From Clostridia bacterium (GTDB lineage Bacteria > Bacillota > Clostridia > Oscillospirales > CAG-272), in the NCBI GenBank assembly GCA_017453305.1, contig JAFTKJ010000022.1, positions 1-40,930 of the forward strand: a stretch of 40,930 bases of DNA, given 5' to 3'. The position numbers and the translations under genes are program-made. The notes beneath the pieces are model-generated. The model was not told the DNA's origin. It ran no database searches and saw only the letters and a program-made list of their open reading frames with translations. Position 1 is the first letter of the stretch. Each line of letters starts with the position of its first letter. Positions 18,438 through 39,864 of the stretch are shown piece after piece.

Positions 18438-19601
18438 ATGAAAAAAAGATTTTGGAAGCTCCTGTGCTGCTTTCTGTTGATGCTTGCCGCCGTATTTGCA
18501 AATACGCCGCAGGTGTTGGCTGAACCCCCTCATAAGGAGTCCGTTTTCGCCATGAGCAATCACCTCATCCCATCCCCCGACCTCGCAGATCCCATCCCAT
18601 GCACCACCCTGCTCTCCCCTGCGGTCGCGGCGGACACCGCCACGCCCTTGCCCGAGGACGTTGAGCAGCTCACGCTTTATCCCGGCGGCATGCCGTTTGG
18701 CGTAAAATTTTATACCGATGGGGTCATGATCGTCGGCTTTGGTGCGGTGGAGACCAAAAACGGCTCCGTCAATCCCGCCGCTGAGGCAGGTCTGCACACA
18801 AAGGATCTCATTTTGCAGATCAACGGCGAAAAGCTTGCAAATGCCGCAGACCTGACCCGACGCATTGAAGCCTGCGAGGGCAAATCCCTGCGTCTTTTGT
18901 GCAAGCGCGGCAACCGCGAGTTTGAGACTGTTCTGCAACCGAGCTGGTGCCCGGCAGAATCCCGATACAAGACCGGCATCTGGGTACGCGACAGCGGCGC
19001 CGGGATCGGGACGGTCACCTTTATCTTTCCCGACACGGGCGCCTTTGCAGGGCTTGGGCACGGCATTTGCGATGCCGACACGGGAGCCCTGATCCAAATG
19101 AAACGCGGCACGGTGTCGGACGTGACCATCTCCGCCATTGTCAAGGGGGAGGCAGGAAAGCCCGGAGAGCTGAAGGGCTACTTTAACACGGGCAAGGTGG
19201 GCGCACTCCTGGGCAACTCCTCGTGCGGCGTGTGGGGAATGTTCTCCGACGTGCCGGAATGCCCGAACGAGCCGCTCCCCGTTGGCTTGCGTGAGGACAT
19301 TGAGGAGGGAGACGCCTATATTTTATGCGCTGTAGATCACAACAAGATCTGCAAATACGACATAAAGATCTCAAACGTCAACCGTGATGCAAAGGGCTCA
19401 AAATGCTTTACGGTCACCGTCACCGACCCGGACCTGCTTGCCTTGACGGGCGGCATCGTGCAAGGAATGTCTGGCTCCCCGATCATCCAGAACGGCAAGC
19501 TCGTCGGCGCGGTAACACATGTTCTCATCAACGATCCCACCACGGGGTACGGCATCTTTCTGGAAAACATGCTTGTCAATATGCCGATGATGGCGAGATA
19601 A
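18438..19601 (+). CDS. spoIVB: SpoIVB serine peptidase, sporulation
   Basis: A 387-residue S55-family protease that is made in the forespore, crosses into the intermembrane space and triggers pro-sigma-K processing. An N-terminal signal/anchor (about residues 1-30) is followed by a PDZ domain (about 78-160, with AGLHTKDLILQINGEKL) and the peptidase domain. His208 in GLGHGI and Ser345 in GMSGSP are the expected catalytic residues. AAAGGT precedes the ATG at 18438; the open frame upstream to 18369 lacks a site. The 3' end from Ser345 onward is duplicated at 23473 and 25796 and in decayed form further right. The present 3' end may therefore have been supplied by an inserted element. Confidence 0.92.
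   Translation: MKKRFWKLLCCFLLMLAAVFANTPQVLAEPPHKESVFAMSNHLIPSPDLADPIPCTTLLSPAVAADTATPLPEDVEQLTLYPGGMPFGVKFYTDGVMIVGFGAVETKNGSVNPAAEAGLHTKDLILQINGEKLANAADLTRRIEACEGKSLRLLCKRGNREFETVLQPSWCPAESRYKTGIWVRDSGAGIGTVTFIFPDTGAFAGLGHGICDADTGALIQMKRGTVSDVTISAIVKGEAGKPGELKGYFNTGKVGALLGNSSCGVWGMFSDVPECPNEPLPVGLREDIEEGDAYILCAVDHNKICKYDIKISNVNRDAKGSKCFTVTVTDPDLLALTGGIVQGMSGSPIIQNGKLVGAVTHVLINDPTTGYGIFLENMLVNMPMMAR
19461..19480 (+). other. probable insertion target within spoIVB (catalytic Ser codon)
   Basis: Bases 19468-19471 (TGTC), followed by GGCTCCCC, are the point where downstream copies of spoIVB stop matching: to the right of TGTCN all copies match spoIVB, to the left they carry the shared 29-bp junction sequence instead. 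TCT here encodes Ser345; in the copies the equivalent codon reads TCA or TCG/TCC, still Ser. This is what a site-specific recombinase crossover at a conserved codon would leave. Inferred from comparison of copies only. Confidence 0.55.
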
Positions 19602-19740
19602 TAAAAACATTGTCCCTTATAGAACATGCACCATGTGTGAGTTCAATAAGGGACAACAGTCTTTTGTCCGATTTTTATGTGAAATTTATTAATGATATGT
19701 TGTCCCTATTATATCACACTGGTATCCCTTGGATGATGCC
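19602..19740. repeat. conserved left-end module of segment 1
   Basis: Directly behind the spoIVB stop lies an inverted repeat TTGTCCCTTAT (19610-19620) and ATAAGGGACAA (19646-19656), extended by GAAC/GTTC after a one-base mismatch. A third TTGTCCCT occurs at 19700-19707. Bases 19575-19671 equal 23575-23671 without a change; 19698-19720 and 19725-19740 also recur, separated by short variable stretches. The stem could terminate spoIVB transcripts or bind a recombinase. Confidence 0.75.
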
Positions 19741-19754
19741 CCCTATGAGTGATA

Positions 19755-20138
19755 CTACGTTCCCTCGTATTTACCACCGATGTTTTTAGCAAATTTAAAG
19801 AAGATCGAACGCATTGATTCAACATTATCATCATCGGCAGAAAATTGAATGTACGAGTGCTTTTCGCTACCGTAATTTGAACGCTCATACGATATATAAT
19901 TACCAACAGGGGAATCAAAACCATTAGAAGAGGATGTTATTTTACATATTTGATCTGTATTTGCATCAAAGCGAATCCCATTAAATATTATCTCTAAATC
20001 ATTTACAGCGTATGGTCTCGGTATTTTTTCGGAGATTGCCTTGATAAGTGGACATTCCACCTTACCGCATAGTGAATATGATAGGCGAAATTCCGACTCG
20101 TTGGAAATTTTCTCTTGAAAAATGACATGGCACAGCAT
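19755..20138 (-). CDS. hypothetical protein, possibly truncated
   Basis: I do not recognise this 127-residue open frame. It is hydrophilic and without motif, signal peptide or membrane helix; it has CGKVECP with two cysteines near residue 25. There is no ribosome site before the ATG, so the gene may be the remnant of a longer one cut at its 5' end, or not expressed. It ends 15 bases from the conserved end module of segment 1, the same place and orientation as the membrane-protein gene in segment 2. Confidence 0.4.
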   Translation of the reverse strand: MLCHVIFQEKISNESEFRLSYSLCGKVECPLIKAISEKIPRPYAVNDLEIIFNGIRFDANTDQICKITSSSNGFDSPVGNYISYERSNYGSEKHSYIQFSADDDNVESMRSIFFKFAKNIGGKYEGT

Positions 20139-20221
20139 AACAGCAGAGCACGCTGACCTCTGATACCGAAAAATCTCCCGATAATATAATAACGCTCTTG
20201 TCGAGCAAAGCTTATTTTATA

Positions 20222-21247
20222 TTAACATTTCTTGAGAAGCTCGTGGATTATAGGCCATACCTCGTCGGGATAGAACTGATGTCCGCCGTCGCCAACAACA
20301 TGATAAACGTTATCGCCGTTTCCAATGTGGTTGAATACACCCTTCGCTATTTCAAAGCTTTCCTTTGCTCCGTTTATTGGGAAAATTCTGTCAATTTTTC
20401 CGGAAACTATAACGAGCTTACGTTCAGCCATAAGTCCTGCGATATCACCCATATCAAAATATTTTCTGATGCCGGGAACATAGTTGCAATAGCAGTGGTA
20501 CATCCCCATTATAGAGTCCTCAAAAGTACAAACAGCGCAGGAAGGAACACCGATAGAAATTCTCTCGTCAATGCAAGCAGCATAGAATGTTGCCGTTCCT
20601 CCGCCCGAGTTACCAATGCCGATAATCTTGTTTTCGTCTATTATGTCGGCGAAATTAATAAGCGCCACATCTATGGTTCTCATAACGTCAAATACTCTCT
20701 CACCGATAGCACATCTTCCGATAAGAAGCGTTCCGTTTGCGTGACCTGCATCATCGTTTCCGTGAAGACAGGCAGGTCTGCCGTCAGTTCCGCCAAAGCC
20801 TGAAACACCCATATATCTTTGCTCTATTGCAATTGCAACGCAGCCCTCGTGCGCCGCTCTGACTGCAAAATCTCGTCCGCCCTCTATTACGTCACCCGGA
20901 TATTTTGTTTCACCAAGGGATATATGCATACCCGTGCTGTGCCCCTGGAGGCATATAACGAGAGGGACTTTTCCGACATGGTCGGTTTTCTTAACGAGGC
21001 AGGCGGGAACCTCGTATCCATCCTCGCTCTCAAAGGTAAATCTTATGTATGTGAGGTCGCCCTTAATTTCCGGCGCTTCGGCTTTAAAATTATCGCATTT
21101 TGCCTTTTCAAGCGGAAGTCCGAGAAGGTCCTCAAGCTTTTCCTTTGCGCGCTCCTTCCAAGCCTTATAATCCTCTTTGAAGTCATAACGAAACTTTGGT
21201 GTCATATTCTTTGTTAGATTAAGTATAAACTCTCTTGAAGTTATCAT
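20222..21247 (-). CDS. alpha/beta-hydrolase, acetyl-esterase-like
   Basis: A 341-residue cytoplasmic serine hydrolase. The nucleophile is Ser214 in GIGNSGGG, the acid probably the Asp in VSGKID, and the base the His in GDGGHQFYPDE. The large N-terminal extension and the oxyanion loop LQGHSTGMH resemble the acetyl-xylan-esterase/abhydrolase group. It follows the aminotransferase gene directly. The ATG at 21247 is preferred because GGAG is eight bases upstream; the ATG six bases earlier is almost inside the ribosome site. The substrate may be an acylated sugar or an amino-acid-derived ester; the operon with aminotransferase and an M20 remnant favours a nitrogenous compound. Confidence 0.8.
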   Translation of the reverse strand: MITSREFILNLTKNMTPKFRYDFKEDYKAWKERAKEKLEDLLGLPLEKAKCDNFKAEAPEIKGDLTYIRFTFESEDGYEVPACLVKKTDHVGKVPLVICLQGHSTGMHISLGETKYPGDVIEGGRDFAVRAAHEGCVAIAIEQRYMGVSGFGGTDGRPACLHGNDDAGHANGTLLIGRCAIGERVFDVMRTIDVALINFADIIDENKIIGIGNSGGGTATFYAACIDERISIGVPSCAVCTFEDSIMGMYHCYCNYVPGIRKYFDMGDIAGLMAERKLVIVSGKIDRIFPINGAKESFEIAKGVFNHIGNGDNVYHVVGDGGHQFYPDEVWPIIHELLKKC

Positions 21248-21249
21248 TT

Positions 21250-22428
21250 TCATATCTCCTTTTTTCCAAACGCTGCTTCCATACGGTCAAGCGCTTCTTT
21301 AATCTTTTCGTATTTTGAGGCGTAGCATATTCTGATAAAACCTTCGCCCCCATCTCCAAATGCGCTTCCCGGGGCAGTAACTACATGAGTCTTTTCGAGG
21401 ATATATTCGGCAGTTTCCACAGAGTTCATACCGAAGCCCGTAATATTGGGAAATACGTAAAACGCACCTTTGGGGTTGTAACAGGAGAAGCCGTTGATAC
21501 GATTAAGTCCATTCACGATCAAACTGCGGTTGCGTTCGTAATATGCGACCATTTCATCTACATCCTTCTGACCGTTGTAAAGAGCTTCGGTCGCCGCCAT
21601 CTGCATCGGTTCGGGAATGCTTGCAATCATAAATTCCTGGAGCTTTATCATCTCTTGCATAATTCTCTCGTTGGCGCAGATGTATCCTACACGAAATCCT
21701 GTCATCGCATAGGTTTTTGAAAGGCTGTTAATGGTGATGACATACTCCTCAAGTCCATCGTCTACAGCTGCAAGGCTCTTTTGCTCAAAACCGTCGTAAA
21801 CCAGCTTTTCATAAGGCTCGTCGGAAATGGTAAATATTTTGTACTTTTTTACAATTGCAGCAATTGCCTTCAAATCCTGCTCATCCAGCACACCGCCTGT
21901 AGGGTTAGAGGGCGAATTGATAATTATCAGCTTTGTTTTATCCGTAATCAGTGGCTCAATGATATCAGCAGTCATCTTAAAACCGTTTTCTTCACTCACA
22001 CACGCATAAACTGTTTTTCCGCCAACCGTGTCAATCTGTCCCTTATAATCCGGCCAGTTGGGTCCTTGAATAATGACCTCGTCACCTTTATCAACGACTG
22101 TTGCTATAGCGAGCATCAATCCCTGTGTCGCACCTGCTGTGACAATAAGATTCTTGTCGGGATCACACTTAATACCATTCTCAACCCAAAGCTTATGAGC
22201 AATAGCGTTGCGAAGAGGTTTGATACCCGCATTAGGCGTATATTTGGTCTTTCCCGCGCGGAGCGATTCTATCGCCGCCTCAATCATATGCGTCGGCGTA
22301 GTAAACCCGGGCTCTCCAAGCGTTAAATTGATAGAATCATCATAATTCTTTGCCAGCTCGAACATTCTTCTGACACCGGAAGGCATTGCATTCCGCGCTG
22401 CATCACTTAAGCTCTGTCTATTTATCAT
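21250..22428 (-). CDS. PLP-dependent aminotransferase, class I/II
   Basis: A 392-residue fold-type I enzyme that transfers amino groups between amino and 2-oxo acids. It has SNPTGG for the cofactor phosphate region, Asp-Glu-Pro-Tyr (SDEPYEKL) and the Schiff-base Lys238 in SLSKTYAMTGFRVGY; the C-terminal Arg lies in GFIRICYA. It resembles aspartate/aromatic aminotransferases of Firmicutes. The ATG at 22428 is chosen because GAGG ends six bases before it. It sits behind the M20 remnant and before the esterase, and is divergent from an Lrp regulator that likely senses an amino acid. Confidence 0.88.
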   Translation of the reverse strand: MINRQSLSDAARNAMPSGVRRMFELAKNYDDSINLTLGEPGFTTPTHMIEAAIESLRAGKTKYTPNAGIKPLRNAIAHKLWVENGIKCDPDKNLIVTAGATQGLMLAIATVVDKGDEVIIQGPNWPDYKGQIDTVGGKTVYACVSEENGFKMTADIIEPLITDKTKLIIINSPSNPTGGVLDEQDLKAIAAIVKKYKIFTISDEPYEKLVYDGFEQKSLAAVDDGLEEYVITINSLSKTYAMTGFRVGYICANERIMQEMIKLQEFMIASIPEPMQMAATEALYNGQKDVDEMVAYYERNRSLIVNGLNRINGFSCYNPKGAFYVFPNITGFGMNSVETAEYILEKTHVVTAPGSAFGDGGEGFIRICYASKYEKIKEALDRMEAAFGKKEI

Positions 22429-22467
22429 ATTTAACCTCATTTACATTCTAAGACATAATCCCAAGGC

Positions 22468-22590
22468 TTAAAGTTCTTCCTTGACAATTGCAACAGTGCT
22501 GTCAAGCTCAAATCCAACCTCAGCACATTTGTGCAAGTCGCGGTAAAGCTCGACTGCCCTCGTGTAATATTTATCGTAATCAAATATCAT
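22468..22590 (-). pseudogene. N-terminal remnant of an M20-family amidohydrolase
   Basis: A 40-residue frame with a strong GGAGG site eight bases before its ATG. It reads like the first residues of M20 amidohydrolases: YDKYYTRAVELYRDLHK, AEVGFELDSTVAIVKEEL, then a stop. The metal-binding and catalytic parts are gone. The body of the gene was probably deleted when the aminotransferase was joined behind it, leaving the promoter and leader to drive the aminotransferase. It could now act as a short leader peptide. Confidence 0.6.
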
Positions 22591-22619
22591 AATTTGTCCT
22601 CCAAGCATTTTTGTAATTA

Positions 22620-22648
22620 ATTATACAACCATAAATCGCATATGTCAA
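22620..22648 (-). promoter_or_regulatory. promoter of the aminotransferase/esterase operon
   Basis: On the minus strand TTGACA (22648-22643) and TATAAT (22625-22620) have a 17-base spacer and perfect hexamers. The region to the Lrp promoter (22649-22779) is very AT-rich and probably carries the Lrp binding sites. Confidence 0.82.
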
Positions 22649-22779
22649 AAATCGTTTTTTATTTCATATTATCTTTTGCTAAAATATAAAACCGGATTGC
22701 ACAAAATATACATTTTCCGAAAATCGAATTTTAACTTTTTTATATATTTACTTAAATTTTTGTCATTTTCTATATAATA

Positions 22780-22808
22780 TTGACTTTTTATAAACATTAC
22801 TGTATAAT
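22780..22808 (+). promoter_or_regulatory. promoter of the Lrp-family regulator
   Basis: TTGACT (22780-22785) and TATAAT (22803-22808) with a 17-base spacer, 28 bases before the start codon. Confidence 0.8.
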
Positions 22809-22836
22809 ATAGTTAAAATATTTCGAGGTGCAAAAA

Positions 22837-23280
22837 ATGGATAAAACAGATGCTAAAATTATTGAAATGCTATCAAAAGGTTCCGACATTACCGCAACGG
22901 AGCTATCACGAGAGCTTTGTTATTCAATTCCTGCTATCAACAAACGCATACGCACGCTAAAAAAGGATGGAATAATAAAACATTTTACAATAATTACAGA
23001 TAATAAAAAGATAGGCAAGCCGATACTTTCATTTGTGCTTATTACACTAAAATCAATAGAGCACACCGAGCCGTTTTTCAGCTATGTGGAAGGAGATTGC
23101 GATATTCTCGAGTGCTATGCGATAACGGGGGAATATGACTGTCTGCTCAAAATTTGCGCCGCCTCAATGGAAGAACTTGACAAAAAACTCGCAATCTTGA
23201 AAATGCGCAACGGTGTGGCAAAAAGCTATACTATGCTTTCGCTGACAACGCATAAATACGCTCCCACTATTTTGCCATAA
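22837..23280 (+). CDS. Lrp/AsnC-family transcriptional regulator
   Basis: A 147-residue regulator: N-terminal helix-turn-helix (DAKIIEMLSKGSDITATELSRELCYSIPAINKRIRTL in pieces, about residues 4-42) and a C-terminal ligand-sensing RAM domain with ITGEYDCLLKICAASMEELD. The ATG at 22837 has GAGGTG six bases before it; a GTG nine bases earlier is part of that site. Divergent from the aminotransferase operon, so it probably controls that operon in response to an amino acid. Codon use is AT-rich, like the rest of segment 1. Confidence 0.88.
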   Translation: MDKTDAKIIEMLSKGSDITATELSRELCYSIPAINKRIRTLKKDGIIKHFTIITDNKKIGKPILSFVLITLKSIEHTEPFFSYVEGDCDILECYAITGEYDCLLKICAASMEELDKKLAILKMRNGVAKSYTMLSLTTHKYAPTILP

Positions 23281-23442
23281 ACAAAGGAATCATCCAAGAG
23301 ATGAATTAGATAATAAATATTAAAAAACAAGAAAAAGAACTGTATGTCACACGTTCAAGTCACAAAATATATTTAGAAAACAAGACAAAAAAGCGATTTT
23401 CTTAACAAACAGTGTCGAAACAGTACATAATCTGTAAAAATG

Positions 23443-23471
23443 TGTTGTCCCTACTTGACCACACTCGTGTC
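23443..23471 (+). repeat. 29-bp junction sequence, copy 1
   Basis: Starts TGTTGTCCCTACTTGACC and ends GTGTC, where it is fused to a spoIVB 3' end. Identical in all 29 bases to copy 2 at 25766-25794. The preceding bases 23281-23442 hold no recognisable gene. Confidence 0.9.
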
Positions 23472-23472
23472 A

Positions 23473-23601
23473 GGCTCCCCGATCATCCAGAACGGCAAGC
23501 TGGTCGGCGCGGTCACGCACGTGCTGATCAACGATCCCACCACGGGCTACGGCATCTTTCTGGAAAACATGCTGGTCAATATGCCGATGATGGCGAGATA
23601 A
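23473..23601 (+). pseudogene. spoIVB 3'-end duplicate, copy 1
   Basis: Forty-three codons matching spoIVB from Gly346 to the stop. There are eight base differences from the intact gene and all are synonymous third-position changes; the protein fragment is identical. It lacks any start and is not a gene by itself. Such a pattern means the copy was under protein-level selection until recently, for example as the end of a working spoIVB in another lineage. Confidence 0.9.
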
Positions 23602-23739
23602 TAAAAACATTGTCCCTTATAGAACATGCACCATGTGTGAGTTCAATAAGGGACAACAGTCTTTTGTCCGAAAATATTAAATTTTGTGTGTAAATGTGTT
23701 GTCCCTATTATATCACACTACTCTCCCTTGGATGATGCC
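23602..23739. repeat. conserved left-end module of segment 2
   Basis: Second copy of the module at 19602-19740: TTGTCCCTTAT (23610-23620) with ATAAGGGACAA (23646-23656), a spacer of different sequence, then TGTTGTCCCTATT from 23697 and TCCCTTGGATGATGCC at 23724-23739. The inverted repeat and both outer blocks are unchanged, while the spacer between them differs. Confidence 0.8.
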
Positions 23740-23751
23740 GCTTGTTACAAA

Positions 23752-24276
23752 TCAATTTCCTCCAAGAAACTGCTTCGTTCTCCTTGAATAAACTACCGTT
23801 CCATAGGTATCGTGTTCATCAAAATCACCAATTCCCCAAACGACAGTACCGTCTTCAAGCTCTATGCGTGAACTCCTCATTTGCTGATAAACGGTAATTT
23901 CCCCTTTGTAAACAACATAATCTTTCCGAATATAATCTGTCCACCCCGGAATGATACCCCAAGCCAAGATAGCGACACCCACACAAACAGATATGCTCCA
24001 AATAAAAATGTCTGTAATGATGTTTTCTTTCTCTCGCTTATTTCTGCGCTTGTTTCTACGTTCAAGCTTTTCAAGCTGTTTTTTTGCAAGCTCGTCGCTT
24101 TGCGCTTTTTCTTTGAGCTTTCGTAGGTGTTCTTTTTCTTTTGGGTTCTTCATTGTCAAAGAAGTATATACCCAAAAGCCTATGACAACCACCAATCCTA
24201 GAAGCAATATCGTAAAAATGGTGCTATGAACTATCAATCTTAATTCTGATATTTGAATTCCATTTATATATTTCAT
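23752..24276 (-). CDS. two-helix membrane protein of unknown function
   Basis: Not recognised. The 174-residue protein has a membrane helix at about 14-38 (IVHSTIFTILLLGLVVVIGF), a highly charged, probably coiled-coil stretch at about 43-85 rich in Lys/Glu/Arg, a second helix at about 90-108 and a C-terminal domain of about 60 residues with DGTVVWGIGDFD. Both ends may face outward with the charged stretch in the cytoplasm. It is carried with the AAA ATPase in segment 2; no functional tie is proven. Ribosome site is weak. Confidence 0.6.
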   Translation of the reverse strand: MKYINGIQISELRLIVHSTIFTILLLGLVVVIGFWVYTSLTMKNPKEKEHLRKLKEKAQSDELAKKQLEKLERRNKRRNKREKENIITDIFIWSISVCVGVAILAWGIIPGWTDYIRKDYVVYKGEITVYQQMRSSRIELEDGTVVWGIGDFDEHDTYGTVVYSRRTKQFLGGN

Positions 24277-24305
24277 CTTACCACAATCTCACTTTTATCA
24301 TTAAA

Positions 24306-25595
24306 TTACATAATGTTATCATCCAGTAAAAAGTCTATCACTTCGATATTAAGGATTCCGTTATCGTCATAAAAGCGCTTGCCGATATCATGCCGAACAA
24401 CAATTTTAGGGAAAGAATCTCCTGTCAACGAGAAAGGCTTCAATTCACTTTCTTGCTTTTCCTCGGTCAGCATTGCATACGCTGATTGGATATAGACCTT
24501 TTTCCCCCCTTTAGTTGCGATAAAATCGATCTCACGCGGAACGCTGATCTGCTTCCCCTCTTTGTTACGCTCCCTTGTGGTTATCACGCCAACGTCAACC
24601 GAATATCCGCGAATAACAAGCTCATTATATATGATGTTTTCCATAATATGCGTCATTTCGGGCTGGCGGAATCCGATTCGCGCGTTGCGGAGTCCAACGT
24701 CCTCGCAGTAATATTTATTTGGATAGTTAAAATATGCGCGCCCTTTTACGTCGTAGCGTTTGCTTTCGGCAAACAAAAAGGAATCGATCAAATGATCAAT
24801 ATATGCCTTGACGGTATTTTGTGCAACGTCGATATGCTGAACGGTTTTCAAGGTATCTGCAATTTTAGTTGGATTTGAAAGTGAGCCAACCGACGAGCAA
24901 AGCAAATCTAGCGTAAGAGACAGCACGTCCTCACGCTCTACCTTTTTTCTGTCAACAATATCTTTTAGATACACCTCGGCAAAAAGCGAAGAAAGGTATT
25001 TCATTTTTGCGGCATCATCGGGGCGTGAAATCACAAGTGGCATTCCGCCGTAAAAGGCGTATTCGTCAAAAGCGTCTCGCTTATCTCCACCAACTGCGGA
25101 ATAATACTCTGCAAACGAAAGGGGATGAACGCGAATTTCGTCACTTCTCCCACGAAACTCGGTTAAGATATCCGAAGAAAGCATTTTTGAATTGCTTCCG
25201 GTTACGTAGATATCTAAATTTTCAAGGCTGTTAAGTCCGTTGAGCACGTCGTAGAAAGTAACTTTTTTACCACTTGGGTTATAGGGATTGTCCACGGCAT
25301 CCGACATTTGGATTTCGTCCACAAACAGATAATATTGATCTTCACTGTTTTCAACAAGTCCTCTAACGAACGCAGAAAGCTCAAGCGGGTTTCTGTATTT
25401 CAGATATTTGTCATTATCAAGCGCAAAGAACAGAATATGATCTTCCCCCACGCCATGCTCTTTCAAATAATTCCTAAATAAAACGTTCAAAAGATAGGAC
25501 TTTCCCGAGCGTCTGATTCCCGTTACGACCTTTACCATTCCATCCCATTTGAACTGTATGAGCTGACTTAAATATCGTTCTCTTTTTATTTCCAT
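24306..25595 (-). CDS. ATPase with AAA_14 and DUF4143-type domains
   Basis: A 429-residue protein of a family common in gut anaerobes. Walker A is GIRRSGKS with Lys32, Walker B is YLFVDEIQM, sensor 1 is YVTGSNSKML, and an arginine-rich FRGRSDEIRVHPLSF follows, as typical of AAA_14. The C-terminal third (GLRNARIGFRQPEMTHIMENIIYNEL in part, then REIDFIATKGGKKVYIQSAY) is DUF4143, related to restriction-endonuclease-fold nucleases. The role of the family is unknown; genome-defence or mobile-element functions are often suspected. A consensus promoter lies upstream. Confidence 0.85.
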   Translation of the reverse strand: MEIKRERYLSQLIQFKWDGMVKVVTGIRRSGKSYLLNVLFRNYLKEHGVGEDHILFFALDNDKYLKYRNPLELSAFVRGLVENSEDQYYLFVDEIQMSDAVDNPYNPSGKKVTFYDVLNGLNSLENLDIYVTGSNSKMLSSDILTEFRGRSDEIRVHPLSFAEYYSAVGGDKRDAFDEYAFYGGMPLVISRPDDAAKMKYLSSLFAEVYLKDIVDRKKVEREDVLSLTLDLLCSSVGSLSNPTKIADTLKTVQHIDVAQNTVKAYIDHLIDSFLFAESKRYDVKGRAYFNYPNKYYCEDVGLRNARIGFRQPEMTHIMENIIYNELVIRGYSVDVGVITTRERNKEGKQISVPREIDFIATKGGKKVYIQSAYAMLTEEKQESELKPFSLTGDSFPKIVVRHDIGKRFYDDNGILNIEVIDFLLDDNIM

Positions 25596-25647
25596 ATAGT
25601 CTCCTTAATGATTTATTGATGATTTTGTGCATATACTTTTCAATGAA

Positions 25648-25676
25648 ATTATAACATAATTATTGTTTCTTGTCAA
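25648..25676 (-). promoter_or_regulatory. promoter of the AAA_14 ATPase gene
   Basis: On the minus strand TTGACA (25676-25671) and TATAAT (25653-25648) with a 17-base spacer, both perfect. Confidence 0.82.
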
Positions 25677-25765
25677 TATTATATTGAAAACTTGCTGCAC
25701 AAATACATCTTTTCTTCAAACAATCCTCATTAAATTCTTGTAAATATAGACTTTTCGTTAAAAAC

Positions 25766-25794
25766 TGTTGTCCCTACTTGACCACACTCGTGTC
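25766..25794 (+). repeat. 29-bp junction sequence, copy 2
   Basis: Identical to copy 1 (23443-23471) over the full 29 bases and again fused to a spoIVB 3' end. Confidence 0.9.
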
Positions 25795-25795
25795 A

Positions 25796-25936
25796 GGCTC
25801 GCCCATCATCCAGAACGGCAAGCTCGTCGGCGCGGTTACCCACGTTCTCATCAACGATCCCACCACGGGGTACGGAATTTTCATTGAGAATATGCTCGCC
25901 AATATTCCAACACCGCTGGTGGCAAGAGCGTCGTAA
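25796..25936 (+). pseudogene. spoIVB 3'-end duplicate, copy 2
   Basis: Forty-seven codons in the spoIVB frame: [20 protein letters not shown] and DPTTGYGIF as in the intact gene, then a different C terminus ([17 protein letters not shown], stop). It is followed by a good terminator at 25941-25988. It may be the end of the original host spoIVB, displaced here by later insertions, or the end brought by an older element. Confidence 0.85.
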
Positions 25937-25940
25937 AACC

Positions 25941-25988
25941 AAAAGGCAATATCATTCCGATGCAAAAATCGGTTTGATATTGCCTTTT
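25941..25988. terminator. terminator behind spoIVB copy 2 and araC-type gene
   Basis: Stem AAAAGGCAATATCA (25941-25954) and TGATATTGCCTTTT (25975-25988) with an inner CCGAT/ATCGG stem. Serves both directions between convergent ends. A near-identical terminator occurs at 36910-36953 and a half copy at 33583-33600. Confidence 0.88.
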
Positions 25989-25990
25989 CT

Positions 25991-26806
25991 TTATCGCGTT
26001 TTAAGTGCGCTTTTCCTATATTCACTTGGCGTAATTTTACAGTTTCTTTTAAACAGCTCAAGGAAGTTTGAAAGTGAGCCAAAACCTGACCCGAAACATG
26101 CATCCGAGACCGAAAAACCGTTTGCCAACATACTTTTAGCATGCCCCAACCGAAGTCTTGTCAGCATATCGATATAGGTTTCTCCCGTAACCTTTTTGAA
26201 TAATTCGCTGAAATACGTTGGATGATATCCCGCCTCTGCGGCAACGTCATCAAGGGTTATTTTTTCAGCAAAGTGCATCTCCATATAAACAACAGCTCTC
26301 CTGATGCCTCTGTTCTGCTCACCACGGCTTGCATCCTCTTGGAATATCGTGTTTTTTCTCAAAAGATACTTGACAACGTACTGTAAAATCTGTTTTTGAC
26401 AATCCCCGGACGTTTGACATTCATCAAGCAGTATGTCAGCCGCATTCAGAAGTCTGTCACGTTCCGTACCATCAAACGCGTATGCTCTTTTCATCCTTTC
26501 GAAAACCAGAAGAGCCATATCCTTATCATCAAGGATACTGTTATCAAAAGAAATATTGATAAGTTCAGTCACCTCATTCACATCCAGATAATGAAAGTCG
26601 GTAGGGTTGAGAAAAAAAGCATCGTTTACCGAAATATCGTATTCTACATCGTTGATAATATATTTTCCGGAACCCGACAAAATGATCTCTATCTCAAAAT
26701 AGCTGTGCCAATGCAGAGGATGGCCTCCTACGATTGTGTGCTTTTCTACCGCCAGATTACGACCGTTCGGAAGTCGACGTCTTTCGCATCTTTCTATTTC
26801 ATACAT
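25991..26806 (-). CDS. AraC-family regulator with cupin domain
   Basis: A 271-residue regulator: an N-terminal cupin (about 15-100, with GGHPLHWHSYFEIEIILSG) for sugar sensing and two helix-turn-helix motifs at the C terminus (about 170-265; ITLDDVAAEAGYHPTYFSELF and GFSVSDACFGSGFG with FLELFKR). AGGAG precedes the ATG. Divergent from the beta-mannosidase operon 160 bases away, which it most likely activates. Confidence 0.9.
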   Translation of the reverse strand: MYEIERCERRRLPNGRNLAVEKHTIVGGHPLHWHSYFEIEIILSGSGKYIINDVEYDISVNDAFFLNPTDFHYLDVNEVTELINISFDNSILDDKDMALLVFERMKRAYAFDGTERDRLLNAADILLDECQTSGDCQKQILQYVVKYLLRKNTIFQEDASRGEQNRGIRRAVVYMEMHFAEKITLDDVAAEAGYHPTYFSELFKKVTGETYIDMLTRLRLGHAKSMLANGFSVSDACFGSGFGSLSNFLELFKRNCKITPSEYRKSALKTR

Positions 26807-26840
26807 ATCGTTACTCCTAACAACAATCTATCATAATACA

Positions 26841-26869
26841 ATTATACACGATATTTTTGTTTTTGTAAA
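26841..26869 (-). promoter_or_regulatory. promoter of the araC-type gene
   Basis: On the minus strand TTTACA (26869-26864) and TATAAT (26846-26841), spacer 17. Confidence 0.65.
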
Positions 26870-26910
26870 CAAAAATCATAAAAAACCGTTGATTATCCAT
26901 AGAATATTGT

Positions 26911-26939
26911 TTGAAATTTTAGAATAATGCGGGTATAAT
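26911..26939 (+). promoter_or_regulatory. promoter of the beta-mannosidase operon
   Basis: TTGAAA (26911-26916) and TATAAT (26934-26939), spacer 17. The 40 bases between this and the divergent promoter are the likely site of AraC-type control. Confidence 0.78.
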
Positions 26940-26968
26940 GAAATCAAAAAAGGCAAAAGAGGTGCAAA

Positions 26969-29191
26969 ATGGAAAACATCGTATTGAACGGAACGTGGTC
27001 TCTGAAAGGAAAAAGCCAATGCCGAGAGCCAGAAAACATCATATCCATCGACGCGCAGGTTCCCGGATGCGTACAGCTTGATCTCTCAAAGGCAGGATCC
27101 CTTCCCGAGGATCTTTTTATGGGGCAAAACATACTCGAGGCTGAAAAGTATGAAGAATACGAATGGTGGTATGAACGAAAATTCATTGCGCCAAAGCAAA
27201 GAAGAAACGTGTATCTTGTGTTTGAAGGTGTTGATTGTCTTGCGGAATACTTTTTAAACGGTGTGAAGCTTGGAGAGAGCAAAAACATGTTGATTGCACA
27301 CGAATTCAGAGTGGATGATGCTTTGTGCGACGGAGAAAACGTACTCACCGTTCACCTAAGCTCTGCGATGCTTTCCGCAAGCAAGGAGGATTATCCCATA
27401 AGACTTCTGCACAGCCACAATATTGACGGCTGTTATCTGAGAAAGCCACCGCATTCCTTCGGCTGGGATATTATGCCGCGTGCAGTAACGGCAGGAATAT
27501 GGAGAGATGTTCGGCTGGAAGTCCGCGACCGTATCTACTTTGAACAGTCGTTTATCAGTACAAATAACAACAACGGCACTTTTTTCTACGTTCTTAAATC
27601 CGACAGCTTTGATTTTAGCCGTGTGGAGATTGAATTGGAAGGCTCTTGCGGTGACAGCAAAATAAATGCAAGAAGCGGTTGTAAATGGAAATGCGGAAAG
27701 CTGAATTTTACAGTGAAAGATCCAAAGCTTTGGTTCCCTTACGGGTACGGCGATGCCAACGTTTACGATTGCAAGGCGCGCATTTATGAAAACGGAGTAT
27801 TGGTTCACGAGGATGATATCAGCTTCGGTATACGCGACGTTCAGTTGGATCGCAGAGATCCCGACGGTTCAGATAAAGGTCAATTTAGATTCTTAATTAA
27901 CGGCATTGAGATCATGTGTAAAGGATCAAACTGGGTACCGCTTGATGCCTTCCACTGTCGAGAAGCCGAACGCTACGACCGTGCGCTTGATCTTGTTCGT
28001 GATATTGGCTGTAATATCCTTCGCTGCTGGGGCGGCAACGTCTACGAGGATCACAAGTTTTTTGATTTTTGCGATCGCAACGGAATTATGGTATGGCAGG
28101 ATTTTGCTATGGCATGCGGACTGTACCCCGAGACCGACGAATTTATGCAAAACATGAAGGATGAGGTAACGGCGGTAATCAGAAAACTAAGGAATCATCC
28201 TTCCATCGTTCTTTGGGCGGGCGACAATGAGGTGGACGCCTGCTTCCCACAATACGACCCTAATGCCAATCGGATCACCAGACAGCTGATCTCTGACTGC
28301 GTCCGCGATAACGACCTCGGCAGGCCATATCTTCCAAGCTCCCCGTACATCTCCGAAACGATGTATTCACGAGGTGTCCGATCGCAGGTCTACGGCTCTA
28401 TTCTGCCCGAGGATCATCTTTGGGGACCGCGCGATTATTTCAAAAGCGATTTTTACAAAAACAATTCGGCACATTTTGTCAGCGAAACAGGGTATCATGG
28501 GTGTCCATCACTTGAGTCCATAAAGAAATTTATCACGCCTGACCGAGTGTGGCCATACAGTAATAATTCGGAATGGATTCTTCATTCAAGCGACCAAAAC
28601 GGCAACGACAGTCGTGTCATGTTGATGGAAAAACAGGTTCGGCAGCTTTTTGGAAACGTCCCTACCGACCCCGAAGAATACATTCTGGCATCCCAAATCT
28701 CGCAAGCTGAGGCAAAGAAGTATTTTATTGAGCGCATACGCGTGGGGCGTCCGGAAAAAACGGGCGTTATATGGTGGAATTTGTTAGATGGCTGGCCCCA
28801 AATGTCGGATGCGGTAGTGGACTACTATTTTACAAAAAAAATTGCATACGACTATATAAAACGTTCACAGGCCCCTTTTGCCGTTATTGCTGATGAAATT
28901 TCAAATTGGGGATTCACATTGTATGCTTGTAATGATACGTTAGAGGAAAAACGAGGTAGCTTGACAGTCAAAGACGCTTTCACGGATCAAATAATATACA
29001 AGGGCGACTTCACGGCTGCGGTTAATACCGGCACCCCGATTGCAAAGCTTTCTGCATATTATTCAGAACAAAAAATTCTCATATTTGAATGGGAAGTCGG
29101 CGACAAACGCGGATATAACCACTACCTGTGCGGATATCCTCCGATTTCGCTTGAAATGTACAAGTCGGTGATGAAAAAATACCATTTTTGA
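26969..29191 (+). CDS. beta-mannosidase, glycoside hydrolase family 2
   Basis: A 740-residue cytoplasmic retaining exo-glycosidase that releases mannose from beta-mannosides. Sugar-binding jelly-roll (about 1-170, PGCVQLDLSKAG, WWYERKF), immunoglobulin-like domain (about 185-290), TIM barrel (about 300-600) with NILRCWGGNVYED. Acid/base Glu421 in WAGDNEVD and nucleophile Glu506 in SETGYHG. It is shorter than the usual 800-850 residues, mainly at the C terminus. GAGGTG precedes the ATG. First gene of an operon with a ROK kinase and SIS isomerase. Confidence 0.9.
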   Translation: MENIVLNGTWSLKGKSQCREPENIISIDAQVPGCVQLDLSKAGSLPEDLFMGQNILEAEKYEEYEWWYERKFIAPKQRRNVYLVFEGVDCLAEYFLNGVKLGESKNMLIAHEFRVDDALCDGENVLTVHLSSAMLSASKEDYPIRLLHSHNIDGCYLRKPPHSFGWDIMPRAVTAGIWRDVRLEVRDRIYFEQSFISTNNNNGTFFYVLKSDSFDFSRVEIELEGSCGDSKINARSGCKWKCGKLNFTVKDPKLWFPYGYGDANVYDCKARIYENGVLVHEDDISFGIRDVQLDRRDPDGSDKGQFRFLINGIEIMCKGSNWVPLDAFHCREAERYDRALDLVRDIGCNILRCWGGNVYEDHKFFDFCDRNGIMVWQDFAMACGLYPETDEFMQNMKDEVTAVIRKLRNHPSIVLWAGDNEVDACFPQYDPNANRITRQLISDCVRDNDLGRPYLPSSPYISETMYSRGVRSQVYGSILPEDHLWGPRDYFKSDFYKNNSAHFVSETGYHGCPSLESIKKFITPDRVWPYSNNSEWILHSSDQNGNDSRVMLMEKQVRQLFGNVPTDPEEYILASQISQAEAKKYFIERIRVGRPEKTGVIWWNLLDGWPQMSDAVVDYYFTKKIAYDYIKRSQAPFAVIADEISNWGFTLYACNDTLEEKRGSLTVKDAFTDQIIYKGDFTAAVNTGTPIAKLSAYYSEQKILIFEWEVGDKRGYNHYLCGYPPISLEMYKSVMKKYHF

Positions 29192-29199
29192 GGAAGGTT

Positions 29200-30147
29200 A
29201 TGTACATACTTGGATTTGATATAGGCGGGACAAAGTGCGCCGTTGTCACTGCTCTGTGGGACGGTAAAACGATTGATATTTTAAAAAAGAAGTCGATCCC
29301 TACAGATCACGGCATAAGCGCATATCAGATGTTAGACCGTCTTTTCGAGCTTGCAGACAGCCTGATCGATCAGACTCCCGATAAAATCGGTATCTCCTGC
29401 GGAGGTCCGCTTGATTCCGCACGTGGCATCATCATGAGTCCCCCGAATCTACCCGGCTGGGATAATATTGAAATAGTCAGATACATTGAAAAGCATTACA
29501 ACGCCCCGGCAAAACTACAGAACGATGCAAATGCTTGTGCGCTCGCGGAGTGGAAATTCGGTGCAGGTATCGGATGTAAAAATATGATTTTTTTAACCTT
29601 CGGAACAGGCTTAGGCGCGGGATTGATCCTGAATGGAACATTATACGAGGGCGCAAACGGAAATGCAGGCGAGATCGGTCATATACGTCTCGAAAAGGAT
29701 GGACCGATCGGATATTGCAAGCGCGGATCGTTCGAAGGCTTTTGCAGCGGTGGGGGGATTGCTCAGCTCGGCTACACTATGGGTTTGAAATGCATCAAAG
29801 ACGGCACGTATCCCTTATATTTTAAAGAAGGAATGTCCGTAAATGATATAAATGCAAAGTCGATAGCAGATGCTGCGGCAAAAGGCGACCCCACGGCACT
29901 CGAGGTCTATCGTCTATCCGGGGAATACTTAGGGAAGGGATTATCTCTGCTGATCGATATTTTAAATCCCGAGAAAATTGTCATAGGAAGCATTTTTACC
30001 AGAAACAAATCACTGTTTTTTGATGCTATGACATCCGAAATAGAGAAAGAAGCATTGTTGCCATCTGCAAACTGTTGTAAAATAGTTTCTTCCGGTCTCG
30101 GAGAAGAGATTGGTGATTATGCGTCTGTCGCCACAGCGCTTTTATAA
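29200..30147 (+). CDS. ROK-family sugar kinase
   Basis: A 315-residue kinase with the ROK start LGFDIGGTKCAVV, the LTFGTGLGAGLILNG phosphate loop and GNAGEIGHIRL with the catalytic-region His. The zinc motif C-x-C-G-x-x-G-C is nearly lost: only Cys173 in GYCKRGSFEG remains. It probably phosphorylates glucose, mannose or an N-acetylhexosamine released by the mannosidase. The ATG at 29200 has GGAAGG just before it; a TTG at 29188 overlapping the previous stop is the alternative. Eight bases separate it from the mannosidase stop. Confidence 0.86.
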   Translation: MYILGFDIGGTKCAVVTALWDGKTIDILKKKSIPTDHGISAYQMLDRLFELADSLIDQTPDKIGISCGGPLDSARGIIMSPPNLPGWDNIEIVRYIEKHYNAPAKLQNDANACALAEWKFGAGIGCKNMIFLTFGTGLGAGLILNGTLYEGANGNAGEIGHIRLEKDGPIGYCKRGSFEGFCSGGGIAQLGYTMGLKCIKDGTYPLYFKEGMSVNDINAKSIADAAAKGDPTALEVYRLSGEYLGKGLSLLIDILNPEKIVIGSIFTRNKSLFFDAMTSEIEKEALLPSANCCKIVSSGLGEEIGDYASVATALL

Positions 30148-30157
30148 GGAGAAAAAT

Positions 30158-30751
30158 ATGTTCACTGAACTACTTGAGAGATACCCGAAATTGATTTCTT
30201 GCAAGGACGATATCCTGCGCGCAAGAGAAGCCCTCATACGGTGCTACGAGAAAAAAGGAAAGCTGTTGCTCTGCGGCAACGGCGGAAGCTCTGCTGACTG
30301 CGACCACATCGTCGGAGAGCTTATGAAAGGTTTTTTGCTCAAACGAAAAATAGATGACGATAGAATCCCCAAGGATATCCGTCAATATTTGCAACACTCT
30401 TTACCGGCAATCTCTCTTTCGTCTCAAACAGCCGCTATGAGCGCATTCATCAACGACGCAGAGCCTTCGATGGTTTATGCGCAAATGCTTTACGGTTATG
30501 CCCAACCCAACGACGTATTTATCGGACTGTCCACCTCCGGGAATTCCGCCAACGTAGTAAATGCCGCTACGGTTGCAAAAGCAATCGGGCTTGGAACGAT
30601 TGCACTGACGGGAAAGAACGGTGGTACTCTGTCAGAAATATGCGACGTTGCCATTCGCGTACCCGAAACCGAAACCTACAAGATCCAGGAGCTTCATTTA
30701 CCCGTTTATCACTACCTTTGCGCAGAAATTGAGAAACATTTTTTTGATTGA
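30158..30751 (+). CDS. SIS-domain phosphosugar isomerase (GmhA-like)
   Basis: A 197-residue sugar isomerase domain protein similar to phosphoheptose isomerase: LLCGNGGSSADCDHI (about 37-51) and GLSTSGNSANVVNA bind the sugar phosphate, with a C-terminal ETYKIQELHLPVYH. True GmhA makes heptose for lipopolysaccharide; in a Clostridia operon with a mannosidase and a ROK kinase a hexose-phosphate isomerase or a regulatory SIS role is as likely. Overlapping AAGGAG covers the ROK stop. The stop is three bases before junction copy 3. Confidence 0.8.
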   Translation: MFTELLERYPKLISCKDDILRAREALIRCYEKKGKLLLCGNGGSSADCDHIVGELMKGFLLKRKIDDDRIPKDIRQYLQHSLPAISLSSQTAAMSAFINDAEPSMVYAQMLYGYAQPNDVFIGLSTSGNSANVVNAATVAKAIGLGTIALTGKNGGTLSEICDVAIRVPETETYKIQELHLPVYHYLCAEIEKHFFD

Positions 30752-30754
30752 TTT

Positions 30755-30783
30755 TGTTGTCCTATTTTGACCACACTCCTGTC
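30755..30783 (+). repeat. 29-bp junction sequence, copy 3 (diverged)
   Basis: 24 of 29 bases match copies 1 and 2, with the changes clustered at positions 9-12; TTGACCACACTC is kept. Fused at the same point to GGGCTCTCC of spoIVB type. Confidence 0.75.
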
Positions 30784-30784
30784 G

Positions 30785-30822
30785 GGCTCTCCGCGGGCTA
30801 CGGCATTTTTTTGGAGAACATG
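30785..30822 (+). pseudogene. spoIVB 3'-end duplicate, copy 3 (internally deleted)
   Basis: GGCTCTCC is joined directly to GGGCTACGGCATTTTTTTGG, that is, the Gly-Ser-Pro codons run straight into Gly-Tyr-Gly-Ile-Phe-Leu-Glu-Asn-Met, with about 65 bases of the usual sequence missing. The normal stop is lost. A decayed relic. Confidence 0.65.
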
Positions 30823-30861
30823 CCGAGTGTTCGCATACGTAACGCATATCAAAAAGCCAAA

Positions 30862-30888
30862 CGGCGGCACGATATCCTCGTGCCGCCG
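30862..30888 (-). terminator. GC-rich stem-loop behind the acetyltransferase gene
   Basis: Stem CGGCGGCACGA (30862-30872) and TCGTGCCGCCG (30878-30888), loop TATCC. On the minus strand it is followed by TTTGGCTTTTT, a broken T tract. Confidence 0.7.
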
Positions 30889-30904
30889 CTTGTCAGATCT
30901 ACGT

Positions 30905-31372
30905 TTATTCTTCGGTTTTAAATGCCAGCAGATAGAAGATCTCAATGCCGTTGACGTACTGTCCCATGCGCTGGAATCCGCGGCTTTCGTAAAGCGTCTG
31001 TCCGCGCAAATTTGCAAACTGCGTGGTCAGGCTGATGCCGCCCTTGCCTGCCGCCTTTGCTTCGGCAATGGCATAATCGATCAGCTTTCCGCCAAGACCC
31101 TTGCCTCGAATGCCGTCACGAACGGCAATGCCCAGCACGGGAATGCCCGTACTCCACTGCATAAAGAACACAAGTCCGACCATTTTGCCATCCAGCACTG
31201 CCATCCAATAGCGGTGATTGGTATCCTGCTCGGCGCAAAAACGAAGTGCACCGTTGCGGTTACAATCCTGACGATTAAACAGCGCGCGCGTTTCCGGCCC
31301 CATCGCATCAAAAAAATCGTTGACTAAAGCCACGTCCTCCGGCTTCATGTCGCGAATCAAAATTTCATCCAT
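30905..31372 (-). CDS. GNAT-family N-acetyltransferase
   Basis: A 155-residue acetyl-CoA-dependent acetyltransferase. Motif A is VRDGIRGKGLGGKLIDYA with the R-G-x-G-x-G/A pyrophosphate loop, followed by LYESRGF typical of motif B. Substrate unknown (amine, peptide N terminus or antibiotic). GGAG precedes the ATG and a consensus promoter lies upstream. Its GC-rich codon use resembles the flanking chromosome, unlike segments 1-3, although it lies between junction copies 3 and 4. Confidence 0.85.
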   Translation of the reverse strand: MDEILIRDMKPEDVALVNDFFDAMGPETRALFNRQDCNRNGALRFCAEQDTNHRYWMAVLDGKMVGLVFFMQWSTGIPVLGIAVRDGIRGKGLGGKLIDYAIAEAKAAGKGGISLTTQFANLRGQTLYESRGFQRMGQYVNGIEIFYLLAFKTEE

Positions 31373-31418
31373 TGCAGTATCTCCTTTTTGAAAAGTGGTA
31401 TTCGATAACCGTATTTAC

Positions 31419-31447
31419 ATTATAACATGTCCCGCAAGCAAAGTCAA
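31419..31447 (-). promoter_or_regulatory. promoter of the GNAT gene
   Basis: On the minus strand TTGACT (31447-31442) and TATAAT (31424-31419), spacer 17. Confidence 0.78.
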
Positions 31448-31472
31448 TACGCCACTCAAATTTTTTCAAAAA

Positions 31473-31541
31473 TGTTGTCCCTTCTTGACCACTCCCGTGT
31501 CCGGCTCCCAATCATTCGGGACAAACGGCTCATGGGGCGGT
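31473..31541 (+). repeat. junction sequence copy 4 with decayed spoIVB end
   Basis: Bases 31473-31501 match the 29-bp junction at 26 positions. They are followed by GGCTCCCAATCATTCGGG and, further on, GGGGCGGTCACCCACGT, a frame-shifted relic of the spoIVB 3' end (compare GGCTCCCCGATCATCC and GGCGCGGTCACGCACGT in copy 1). The most degraded copy. Confidence 0.7.
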
Positions 31542-31620
31542 CACCCACGTACGTATCTTCCTTGCTTGAGGGGAATAAAAAACGATTTCTTCGGGAGCAA
31601 TACAAAGTAAAAAATAAGGC

Positions 31621-38895: not shown

Positions 38896-38916
38896 TTTTT
38901 GTTCTCCTTTGCTTGA

Positions 38917-39795: not shown

Positions 39796-39834
39796 AAGCT
39801 CCCTCCGCGTCACTTTCAACATTGCTTCATCCAC

Positions 39835-39864
39835 ATTATAACGCAACTCCATTGACTTTTACAA
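39835..39864 (-). promoter_or_regulatory. promoter of the EamA/GH42 operon
   Basis: On the minus strand TTGTAA (39864-39859) and TATAAT (39840-39835), spacer 18. It overlaps the divergent promoter at 39852-39880 by 13 bases. Confidence 0.65.

What the first reader, a model, noticed from the sequence alone, without database searches (positions are those of the whole stretch)
19461..31541. Ladder of spoIVB 3'-end copies: an integron-like cassette array on a sporulation gene
The spoIVB 3' end is followed, over 12 kb, by four further copies of that end (23473, 25796, 30785, 31502). Each is preceded by the same 29-bp junction sequence, and between junctions lie unrelated AT-rich metabolic or hypothetical cargo genes. 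The arrangement fits serial site-specific insertion at spoIVB, each element restoring the gene end as it enters. Gene-end-restoring integration is known for islands in tRNA and protein genes, and sporulation genes are known prophage targets. An array of small recombinase-free cargo cassettes at spoIVB is not something I know to be described.
Basis: partly seen in the sequence, partly recalled or inferred. Interest (0 to 1): 0.88.

Follow-up and report, generated by a model that had tools for sequence, protein, structure and literature searches.

The report
Serine-recombinase cassette array at spoIVB
A sporulation gene of a gut clostridium carries a stack of small foreign gene packages, each joined at the same exact point of the gene and each followed by a spare copy of the gene's end, and the best-supported source is a family of mobile elements with three serine recombinases that attack this very spot.

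Summary
The ladder is real. spoIVB (18438-19601) is intact and followed by four further copies of its 3' end (23470, 25793, 30782, 31500), two of them degenerate. Each starts at the serine codon of GM|SGSP, behind TTGTCC-N4-TTGACCAC-NCNCNTG. The exact motif occurs nowhere else in the 2.63-Mb draft genome. In 18 other clostridial MAGs all 19 exact matches lead into the same spoIVB codon, with varying cargo upstream. The cassettes carry no recombinase. I found the likely enzyme elsewhere: a clade of large-serine-recombinase (LSR) triplets whose elements end in the same half-site fused to the same spoIVB codon. One such element, identical over 6,586 bp, is fused to two different spoIVB ends. In two near-complete genomes the only spoIVB is in two pieces (on separate contigs) cut exactly there, which gives a 50-bp near-palindromic attP with a TG core. 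The window is best read as an accretion array of recombinase-less cassettes, close in logic to staphylococcal SCC and Dehalococcoides ssrA islands; it is not an integron. Target, dedicated triplet clade, split/intact duality and cassette sharing between divergent hosts appear undescribed in the papers I could search. Not shown: present-day mobility, and how arrays keep spoIVB intact.

The parts
18438..19601 (+). spoIVB, intact (387 aa; PDZ + peptidase S55); the target gene
   Evidence: PF05580 E 2.5e-79; single full copy in own genome
19450..19492 (+). attB-type site in spoIVB (GGIVQGM|SGSPI); inferred TG core at 19468-19469, just before the Ser codon at 19470
   Evidence: position fixed by the junctions and by the split genes in G363 and G328
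19610..19656 (.). palindrome of two inverted half-sites (P.P'-like) after the intact gene end
19700..19741 (+). half-site followed by reverse complement of the spoIVB left half (attL-like remnant)
   Evidence: 14 of 18 bases match, no shuffle as good in 1000
19742..23430 (.). cassette 1 cargo: small hypothetical, abhydrolase-7 esterase, class I/II aminotransferase, Lrp/AsnC regulator
23445..23469 (+). junction 1 (P half-site + TG)
23470..23601 (+). spoIVB 3'-end copy 2 (complete, ends in stop)
23610..23656 (.). second palindrome of half-sites
23699..23740 (+). second half-site + reverse-complement spoIVB left-half remnant
   Evidence: p 0.004
23752..25595 (-). cassette 2 cargo: 174-aa protein without Pfam match and AAA_14/DUF4143 ATPase; 24285-25797 is 93.3% identical to part of an array of another lineage (G069)
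25768..25792 (+). junction 2
25793..25936 (+). spoIVB 3'-end copy 3, followed by a native-type spoIVB terminator (about 25940-25985)
25991..30751 (.). cassette 3 cargo: AraC regulator, GH2-type glycoside hydrolase, ROK kinase, SIS isomerase
30757..30781 (+). junction 3
30782..30831 (+). spoIVB 3'-end copy 4, internally deleted
30905..31372 (-). cassette 4 cargo: GNAT acetyltransferase
31475..31499 (+). junction 4
31500..31560 (+). spoIVB 3'-end copy 5, frameshifted and truncated (most decayed)
37021..39852 (-). right chromosomal flank (GH42-like enzyme and EamA transporter), also found downstream of spoIVB or a junction in three relatives

Best explanation
The locus is a tandem accretion array at a site-specific integration site inside spoIVB. 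The recombinase that fits is a triplet of large serine recombinases carried by ICE- or prophage-like elements elsewhere. It joins the element half-site P (GTTGTCC...CACACTC-N) to the target at the TG of the Met codon just before the active-site serine codon of spoIVB. The autonomous element integrates as B.P' ... P.B' and splits spoIVB (both ends read in two genomes, but on separate contigs, so that they belong to one element is inferred). Array cassettes are recombinase-less derivatives. A circle with site P.B' plus a spoIVB 3' end, recombining with B.B' in spoIVB, gives back B.B' (spoIVB whole, with the incoming 3' end) and leaves P.B' behind it. Because B.B' is regenerated, insertions can stack, the newest next to spoIVB. 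Shown: junctions, target position, variable and shared cargo, triplet elements at the same site, split genes. Inferred: that the triplet acts in trans on the cassettes, the circle intermediate, the order of events, and present-day mobility.
For: (1) 19 of 19 exact junction matches in genome contigs lead directly into the SpoIVB Ser codon; 35 P.B' junctions in 22 of 26 records scanned, 21 genomes (the records were chosen because earlier searches had hit them). (2) The half-site pattern (up to 1 mismatch) is in 20 of 24 genomes, reversed-pattern control 0; its places are on contigs that hold spoIVB or a spoIVB end, except G060:C3 and G070:C7 (contigs not read) and one 1-mismatch place in G076:C32. 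(3) A viral-contig scan with the SpoIVB C-terminus gave 4 loci; three carry an LSR triplet that ends 23, 83 and 140 bp before the same half-site and a 3' copy starting at the same residue; the fourth is an intact gene. (4) Of 394 order genomes only two have strong orthologues of the third LSR (E 4e-238, 1e-231; next 2e-111), and both contigs carry the same junction next to the triplet, in G363 about 1 kb beyond it. (5) L159 and L203 are identical over 6,586 bp up to ...CGTG, then 48 of 71 bases match: one element, two targets. (6) G363 and G328 have spoIVB only in two pieces, profile 2-175 and 175-210, on separate contigs, joined to P' and P; the attP deduced is 24+TG+24, near-palindromic. (7) LSR3 tree of 26: one clade of 15 (support 100/100) holds the 10 rows with a spoIVB end or left half (L342 was found linked in the same call and is labelled unlinked in its tree); 0 of 11 outside are linked within the DNA held. 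(8) Window cassette 2 shares 93.3% of 1,514 bp with G069, whose SpoIVB is 45.6% identical, and the likeness ends in the half-site. (9) Some 3' copies are foreign: G069 copy 4 is 67% like its own intact end and 87% like G009 of the window genus.
Against: No orthologue of the third LSR in any of 25 array/genus genomes searched (7 have some LSR; best E 6e-82, background level); these are draft genomes (the window's is 80% complete). 5 of 15 clade members show no spoIVB sequence in view (L205, L207, L208, L211, L279), nor do the fragments L204, L206 and L209 left out of the tree. P.B' x B.B' exchange is not the standard attP x attB reaction of serine integrases. In several genomes the 3' copies resemble the host's own end or each other (G071 96-97%, G068 95%, G070 copies 94%, window copy 2 91%, G072 90%), which homologous recombination would also give. 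Shared toxin-antitoxin cargo does not bring the same left 3' end. The palindrome plus reversed left-half remnant is not explained by the model. No exact empty site with the window's own flank was found. Loosened to 3 mismatches the junction pattern also hits places away from spoIVB ends in G001, G024, G028 and G034.
Confidence: 0.8

Rival explanations
1. Homologous recombination model: one founding LSR event made P.B'; later cassettes spread and multiplied by homologous recombination between the 130-bp spoIVB ends (or by unequal crossing-over), without further site-specific recombination.
For: Ends are 90-97% alike within five array genomes; likeness between intact end and copy 2 in the window is highest in the distal part and the non-coding stretch behind it; no triplet orthologue in array genomes.
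Against: New cargo must still be joined exactly at P many times; triplet elements use the same junction; foreign 3' ends in G069; half-site combinations P.P', P.B' and B.P' all occur.
Confidence: 0.25
2. Fossil array: accretion by the LSR triplet happened in ancestors, and the cassettes are now fixed and immobile in this genome.
For: No triplet orthologue found in the window genome; distal copies 4 and 5 are decayed.
Against: Junctions 1 and 2 and copies 2 and 3 are intact; part of one cassette is 93% identical in a distant array.
Confidence: 0.4
3. Integron-type or other tyrosine-recombinase cassette array.
For: Serial cassettes at one site, palindromic elements, a toxin-antitoxin cassette.
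Against: Tyrosine recombinases occur in 19 of 19 genomes but on a junction contig in only 2, 22 and 108 kb away; the same half-sites end LSR elements; window cassettes 1 and 3 have their own regulators.
Confidence: 0.03
4. Assembly artefact of a metagenome bin.
For: The window is from a draft genome of 119 contigs, and several relatives' contigs end at spoIVB ends.
Against: The same structure in 21 genomes, one on a 71-kb contig with spoIVB and six further end pieces.
Confidence: 0.02

Closest known systems
Dehalococcoides ssrA genomic islands (PMC3146451, passages read)
   Same: Tandem islands bounded by repeats of the target gene's 3' end; a short conserved motif just upstream of each repeat; serine recombinase; 15 of 31 islands lack the integration module; cargo includes niche metabolism.
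   Different: Target is a tmRNA gene, repeat 20 bp, recombinase pair DsiB/DsiA inside about half the islands. Here a protein gene cut at its active-site codon, ~130-bp ends, an LSR triplet not seen in the arrays searched, cassettes of about 0.7-7 kb, cassette sharing between hosts whose SpoIVBs are 41-55% identical.
Staphylococcal SCC / composite SCC islands (recalled; listing only)
   Same: Serine-recombinase elements stacking at a conserved protein-gene end, with recombinase-less members.
   Different: Target rlmH and CcrAB/C enzymes; here spoIVB and a triplet from ICE- or prophage-like elements.
gin element in Bacillus cereus gerE (PMC5595907, passages read)
   Same: Non-phage element with three serine recombinases that splits a sporulation gene; excised in sporulation.
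   Different: gin is a single element with excision shown; one of its three recombinases is apart from the other two. Here the triplet is one block of adjacent genes, and recombinase-less arrays keep the gene whole.
Streptococcal ICEs with serine-integrase triplets (PMC4701971, passages read)
   Same: Three serine integrases together at one element end, 2-8 bp repeats, target gene disrupted.
   Different: Targets mutT, traG, hsdM; no spoIVB and no cassette arrays in the passages read.

Membership tests
LSR-triplet integrative elements | Three tandem large serine recombinases (Resolvase + Recombinase + zinc ribbon) | tested here: met
   For autonomous elements, not the window: domains scanned for L159 only; L157 and L158 align to it at 44-61%; L200, L201, L277, L281 by reading frames and LSR3 likeness. 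The window array has none
LSR-triplet integrative elements | attP about 50 bp with 2-bp core; target split by integration | tested here: met
   G363 and G328: both junctions read, TG shared, spoIVB in two pieces only, on separate contigs; the reaction itself not tested
CIME / SCC-like accretion array | Tandem recombinase-less elements bounded by att-type repeats | tested here: met
   Junctions in the window and 20 further genomes; PF00239 absent from junction contigs in 19 of 19 genomes
CIME / SCC-like accretion array | Excision or transfer in trans by a related element | not testable with these tools
   No reads or isolates; only cross-host sharing
Integron | IntI tyrosine recombinase at the array | tested here: not met
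   PF00589 on a junction contig in 2 of 19 genomes only, 22 and 108 kb away
Integron | attC sites with R''/R' boxes between cassettes | tested here: inconclusive
   Junctions read as half-site + spoIVB codons; no attC search was run, and the integron box consensus is recalled
skin-type gene-intervening element | Sporulation gene split, element encodes recombinase | tested here: met
   Only for the autonomous element in G363 and G328; not for the window
skin-type gene-intervening element | Excision during sporulation restores the gene | not testable with these tools
   Needs culture

The most novel reading that the evidence does not exclude
spoIVB is a dedicated cassette platform of gut Clostridia, the serine-recombinase counterpart of an integron: a clade of LSR triplets carried by roaming elements that split spoIVB acts in trans on small recombinase-less cassettes. 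These regenerate the target on entry, stack, circulate between divergent hosts, and each time exchange the C-terminal 44 residues, active-site serine included, of a sporulation protease.
Probability: 0.4. Interest if true: 0.85.

Novelty: new variant of a known kind. Interest (0 to 1): 0.72.

Why it matters
It names a new, sharply defined integration hotspot at the active-site codon of a key sporulation protease, gives the enzyme family that most likely uses it, and shows two forms of one system: an autonomous element that breaks the gene and recombinase-free arrays that keep it whole. It offers a route by which uncultured ruminant-gut Clostridia gain and share carbohydrate, glycyl-radical-enzyme and toxin-antitoxin modules. 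A triplet of LSRs with a short, deduced attB in a conserved gene is also testable in vitro and could answer why such elements carry three recombinases.

Tried and rejected
Integron / tyrosine recombinase: PF00589 hits in 19 of 19 genomes but on a junction contig in only 2, far away. Search for the exact array junction in viral contigs: 0; the enzyme was found only when the SpoIVB C-terminus was used as query. Chance repeats: rejected. Palindromes as functional attP: undecided, because their centres vary (CGC, CTC, CAG, CTA, ATG, GTT). L279 as a non-spoIVB insertion: flanks were joined to look for an empty site, no open gene was found, and my first reading of a half-site at each end was wrong, both lie near one end (the wrong reading stands in notebook entry 7). 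Exact empty site in the genus: the right-flank gene is in 7 of 35 genomes, on the same contig as spoIVB or a junction in G000, G012, G015 and G024 only, at very different distances. G004 was at first counted as an array genome; its second end piece starts at a contig edge and equals its own spoIVB end, so it may be the same locus, and I dropped it. Papers: 'spoIVB' with serine recombinase + integration site 0, with prophage 6, with genomic island 3, with serine integrase 1 (passages unrelated); titles and abstract starts only for the others; open-licence library only.

Rows dropped before counts: G073 (99.96% like G061 over 18.6 kb) and the overlapping second piece of G069 were left out of the 35-junction census. 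G002, G015 and G026 are the same records as G075, G077 and G066 and were counted once.
Full report
WHAT IS THERE. spoIVB (18438-19601, peptidase S55, E 2.5e-79) is intact and is the only full copy found in the draft genome. Downstream lie four further copies of its 3' end, starting at 23470, 25793, 30782 and 31500, each at the serine codon of GM|SGSP and each behind TTGTCC-N4-TTGACCAC-NCNCN-TG. The exact motif occurs at these 4 places only in 2.63 Mb. Copies decay with distance from spoIVB, as expected if the newest entry is proximal. Cargo: esterase, aminotransferase and AsnC regulator; DUF4143 ATPase; AraC, GH2, ROK and SIS; GNAT. Cassettes 1-3 are AT-rich. S378 of Bacillus subtilis SpoIVB is the active-site serine (PMC12502668, passages read); that the serine of GM|SGSP is its equivalent is recalled, not tested.

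RELATIVES. An exact scan of the species-genome collection found the junction in 19 stretches from 18 MAGs titled Clostridia or Oscillospiraceae; those whose title names a source are from sheep, goat, deer or yak gut; all 19 run into the same spoIVB codon. Counting weaker sites, 35 junctions in 21 genomes do so. The longest array seen (G069, one 71-kb contig) has spoIVB plus six further end pieces. Cargo differs between genomes: PFL-like glycyl radical enzyme with radical-SAM activase, a MerR regulator and a toxin-antitoxin pair among the proteins scanned, AraC-like and other families by likeness. The Phd/YefM-Doc pair recurs: antitoxin 90-99% identical among six genomes, toxin 90-97% among five, while the complete SpoIVBs of four of them are 41-55% identical to each other; at DNA level the pair is 76-88% alike. 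Part of window cassette 2 is 93.3% identical over 1,514 bp to the G069 array (SpoIVB 45.6%), and the likeness ends inside the half-site, where the window goes on with spoIVB and G069 with the palindrome. In the window's genus 8 of 35 genomes show a junction or an extra end piece (G000, G002, G012, G015, G020, G023, G024, G026), three of them (G012, G020, G023) by weak or degenerate sites only; G004 is doubtful. The right-flank gene 37021-38895 lies downstream of spoIVB or of a junction also in G012, G015 and G024, with inserts of different size.

THE ENZYME. No resolvase-type recombinase lies on the junction contigs of 19 of 19 genomes, and tyrosine recombinases only in 2, at 22 and 108 kb. 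A viral-contig search with SpoIVB C-termini gave four loci. One is an intact gene (L156). The other three (L157, L158, L159) each carry three tandem large serine recombinases and, 140, 23 and 83 bp after the third, a GTTGTCC half-site, TG and the spoIVB serine codon (Pfam domains checked for L159). In 394 genomes of the order, 76 have an LSR hit at 1e-80, but only two exceed 1e-200, and both end in the same junction, G363 about 1 kb beyond the triplet. None of 38 other fetched LSR loci has a SpoIVB end within the roughly 1.5 kb held on each side. Further cases: L203, L277, L280, L281, L342 from a human faecal phage-labelled record; L210 ends in a half-site and a short stretch like the reversed spoIVB left half (likeness not tested). 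In the LSR3 tree a clade of 15 (100/100) holds the linked elements; L205, L207, L208, L211 and L279 of the clade show no spoIVB sequence in the DNA held; 0 of 11 outside are linked.

TWO FORMS. L159 and L203, from two metagenomes, hold one element (6,586 identical bases) fused after ...CACACTCGTG to two different spoIVB ends, so the breakpoint is at TG. In G363 (99% complete) and G328 (98%) spoIVB exists only as two pieces, profile 2-175 and 175-210, on separate contigs, one joined to P' and the other to P beside the triplet. From these the attP is 24 bp + TG + 24 bp, near-palindromic, as expected of a serine integrase site. So the autonomous element appears to break spoIVB at the codon before the active-site serine. 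On the triplet's contig in G363 lie ParA, ParB, an actin-like protein, a YqaJ exonuclease and a sigma-70-like factor; whether all belong to the element is unknown, and conjugation or virion genes were not sought. In L203 another LSR gene starts about 140 bp after the 3' end, so elements seem to stack too.

MODEL. A circle carrying P.B' and a spoIVB end, exchanged at TG with B.B', yields B.B' and P.B': the target is regenerated and the array grows at spoIVB. In favour of imported ends, G069 copy 4 is 67% like its own intact end but 87% like a genome of the window's genus. Against a simple version, ends in G071, G068 and G070 are host-like or like each other (94-97%), and shared toxin-antitoxin cargo does not bring its left end along. 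Homologous recombination between ends may act as well.

UNEXPLAINED. After several ends, the first two in the window among them, lies a palindrome of two half-sites (47 bp in the window) and, some 20-80 bp on, a half-site followed by the left spoIVB half, reversed in 11 of 13 cases and direct in 2; 12 of 13 match it better than at least 99% of shuffles (sites picked by a pattern, three palindromes set aside). They look like attP and attL remnants, but I have no step-by-step account.

KNOWN AND NEW. Tandem serine-recombinase islands at a gene end are known (Dehalococcoides ssrA islands; SCC, recalled). Serine triplets are known in streptococcal ICEs, and a three-recombinase element splits gerE. 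New, as far as the held papers show, are the spoIVB target, the triplet clade tied to it, recombinase-free multi-cassette arrays there, and the split/intact duality. I call it a new variant of a known kind.

Noticed in passing
19610-19656, 23610-23656, and left ends in G002, G004, G067, G068, G069, G009: Palindromes of two inverted half-sites with a variable 3-nt centre behind spoIVB ends; may act as terminators, as variant attP sites, or both.
   Followed up: partly
33577-33600: A 24-bp near-copy (96%) of the spoIVB end/terminator stretch at 25934-25957, beyond the last junction: possible remnant of an older cassette boundary.
   Followed up: no
G069 contig C12, about 51468-51650: A gene fragment related to window 32841-33569 (SGNH-like by eye, no Pfam match) runs into a truncated spoIVB 3' end.
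   Followed up: no
L071:5347-6127 and homologues in G004, G061, G062, G066, G067, G070, G071: Phd/YefM-Doc type toxin-antitoxin pair recurring at spoIVB arrays, like toxin-antitoxin cassettes of large integrons (that comparison is recalled).
   Followed up: partly
G363:C59 with G363:C22; G328:C1 with G328:C26: Near-complete genomes whose only spoIVB is in two pieces at the triplet element's ends: either they do not sporulate or the element must leave.
   Followed up: partly
L203:6843-7871: A second LSR gene (like type 2 of the triplet) starts soon after the spoIVB end copy, suggesting stacked autonomous elements.
   Followed up: no
L342 (MT836038.1): Human faecal record labelled Bacteriophage sp. 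carries the triplet-type LSR and the spoIVB junction, so the system is not confined to ruminants.
   Followed up: partly
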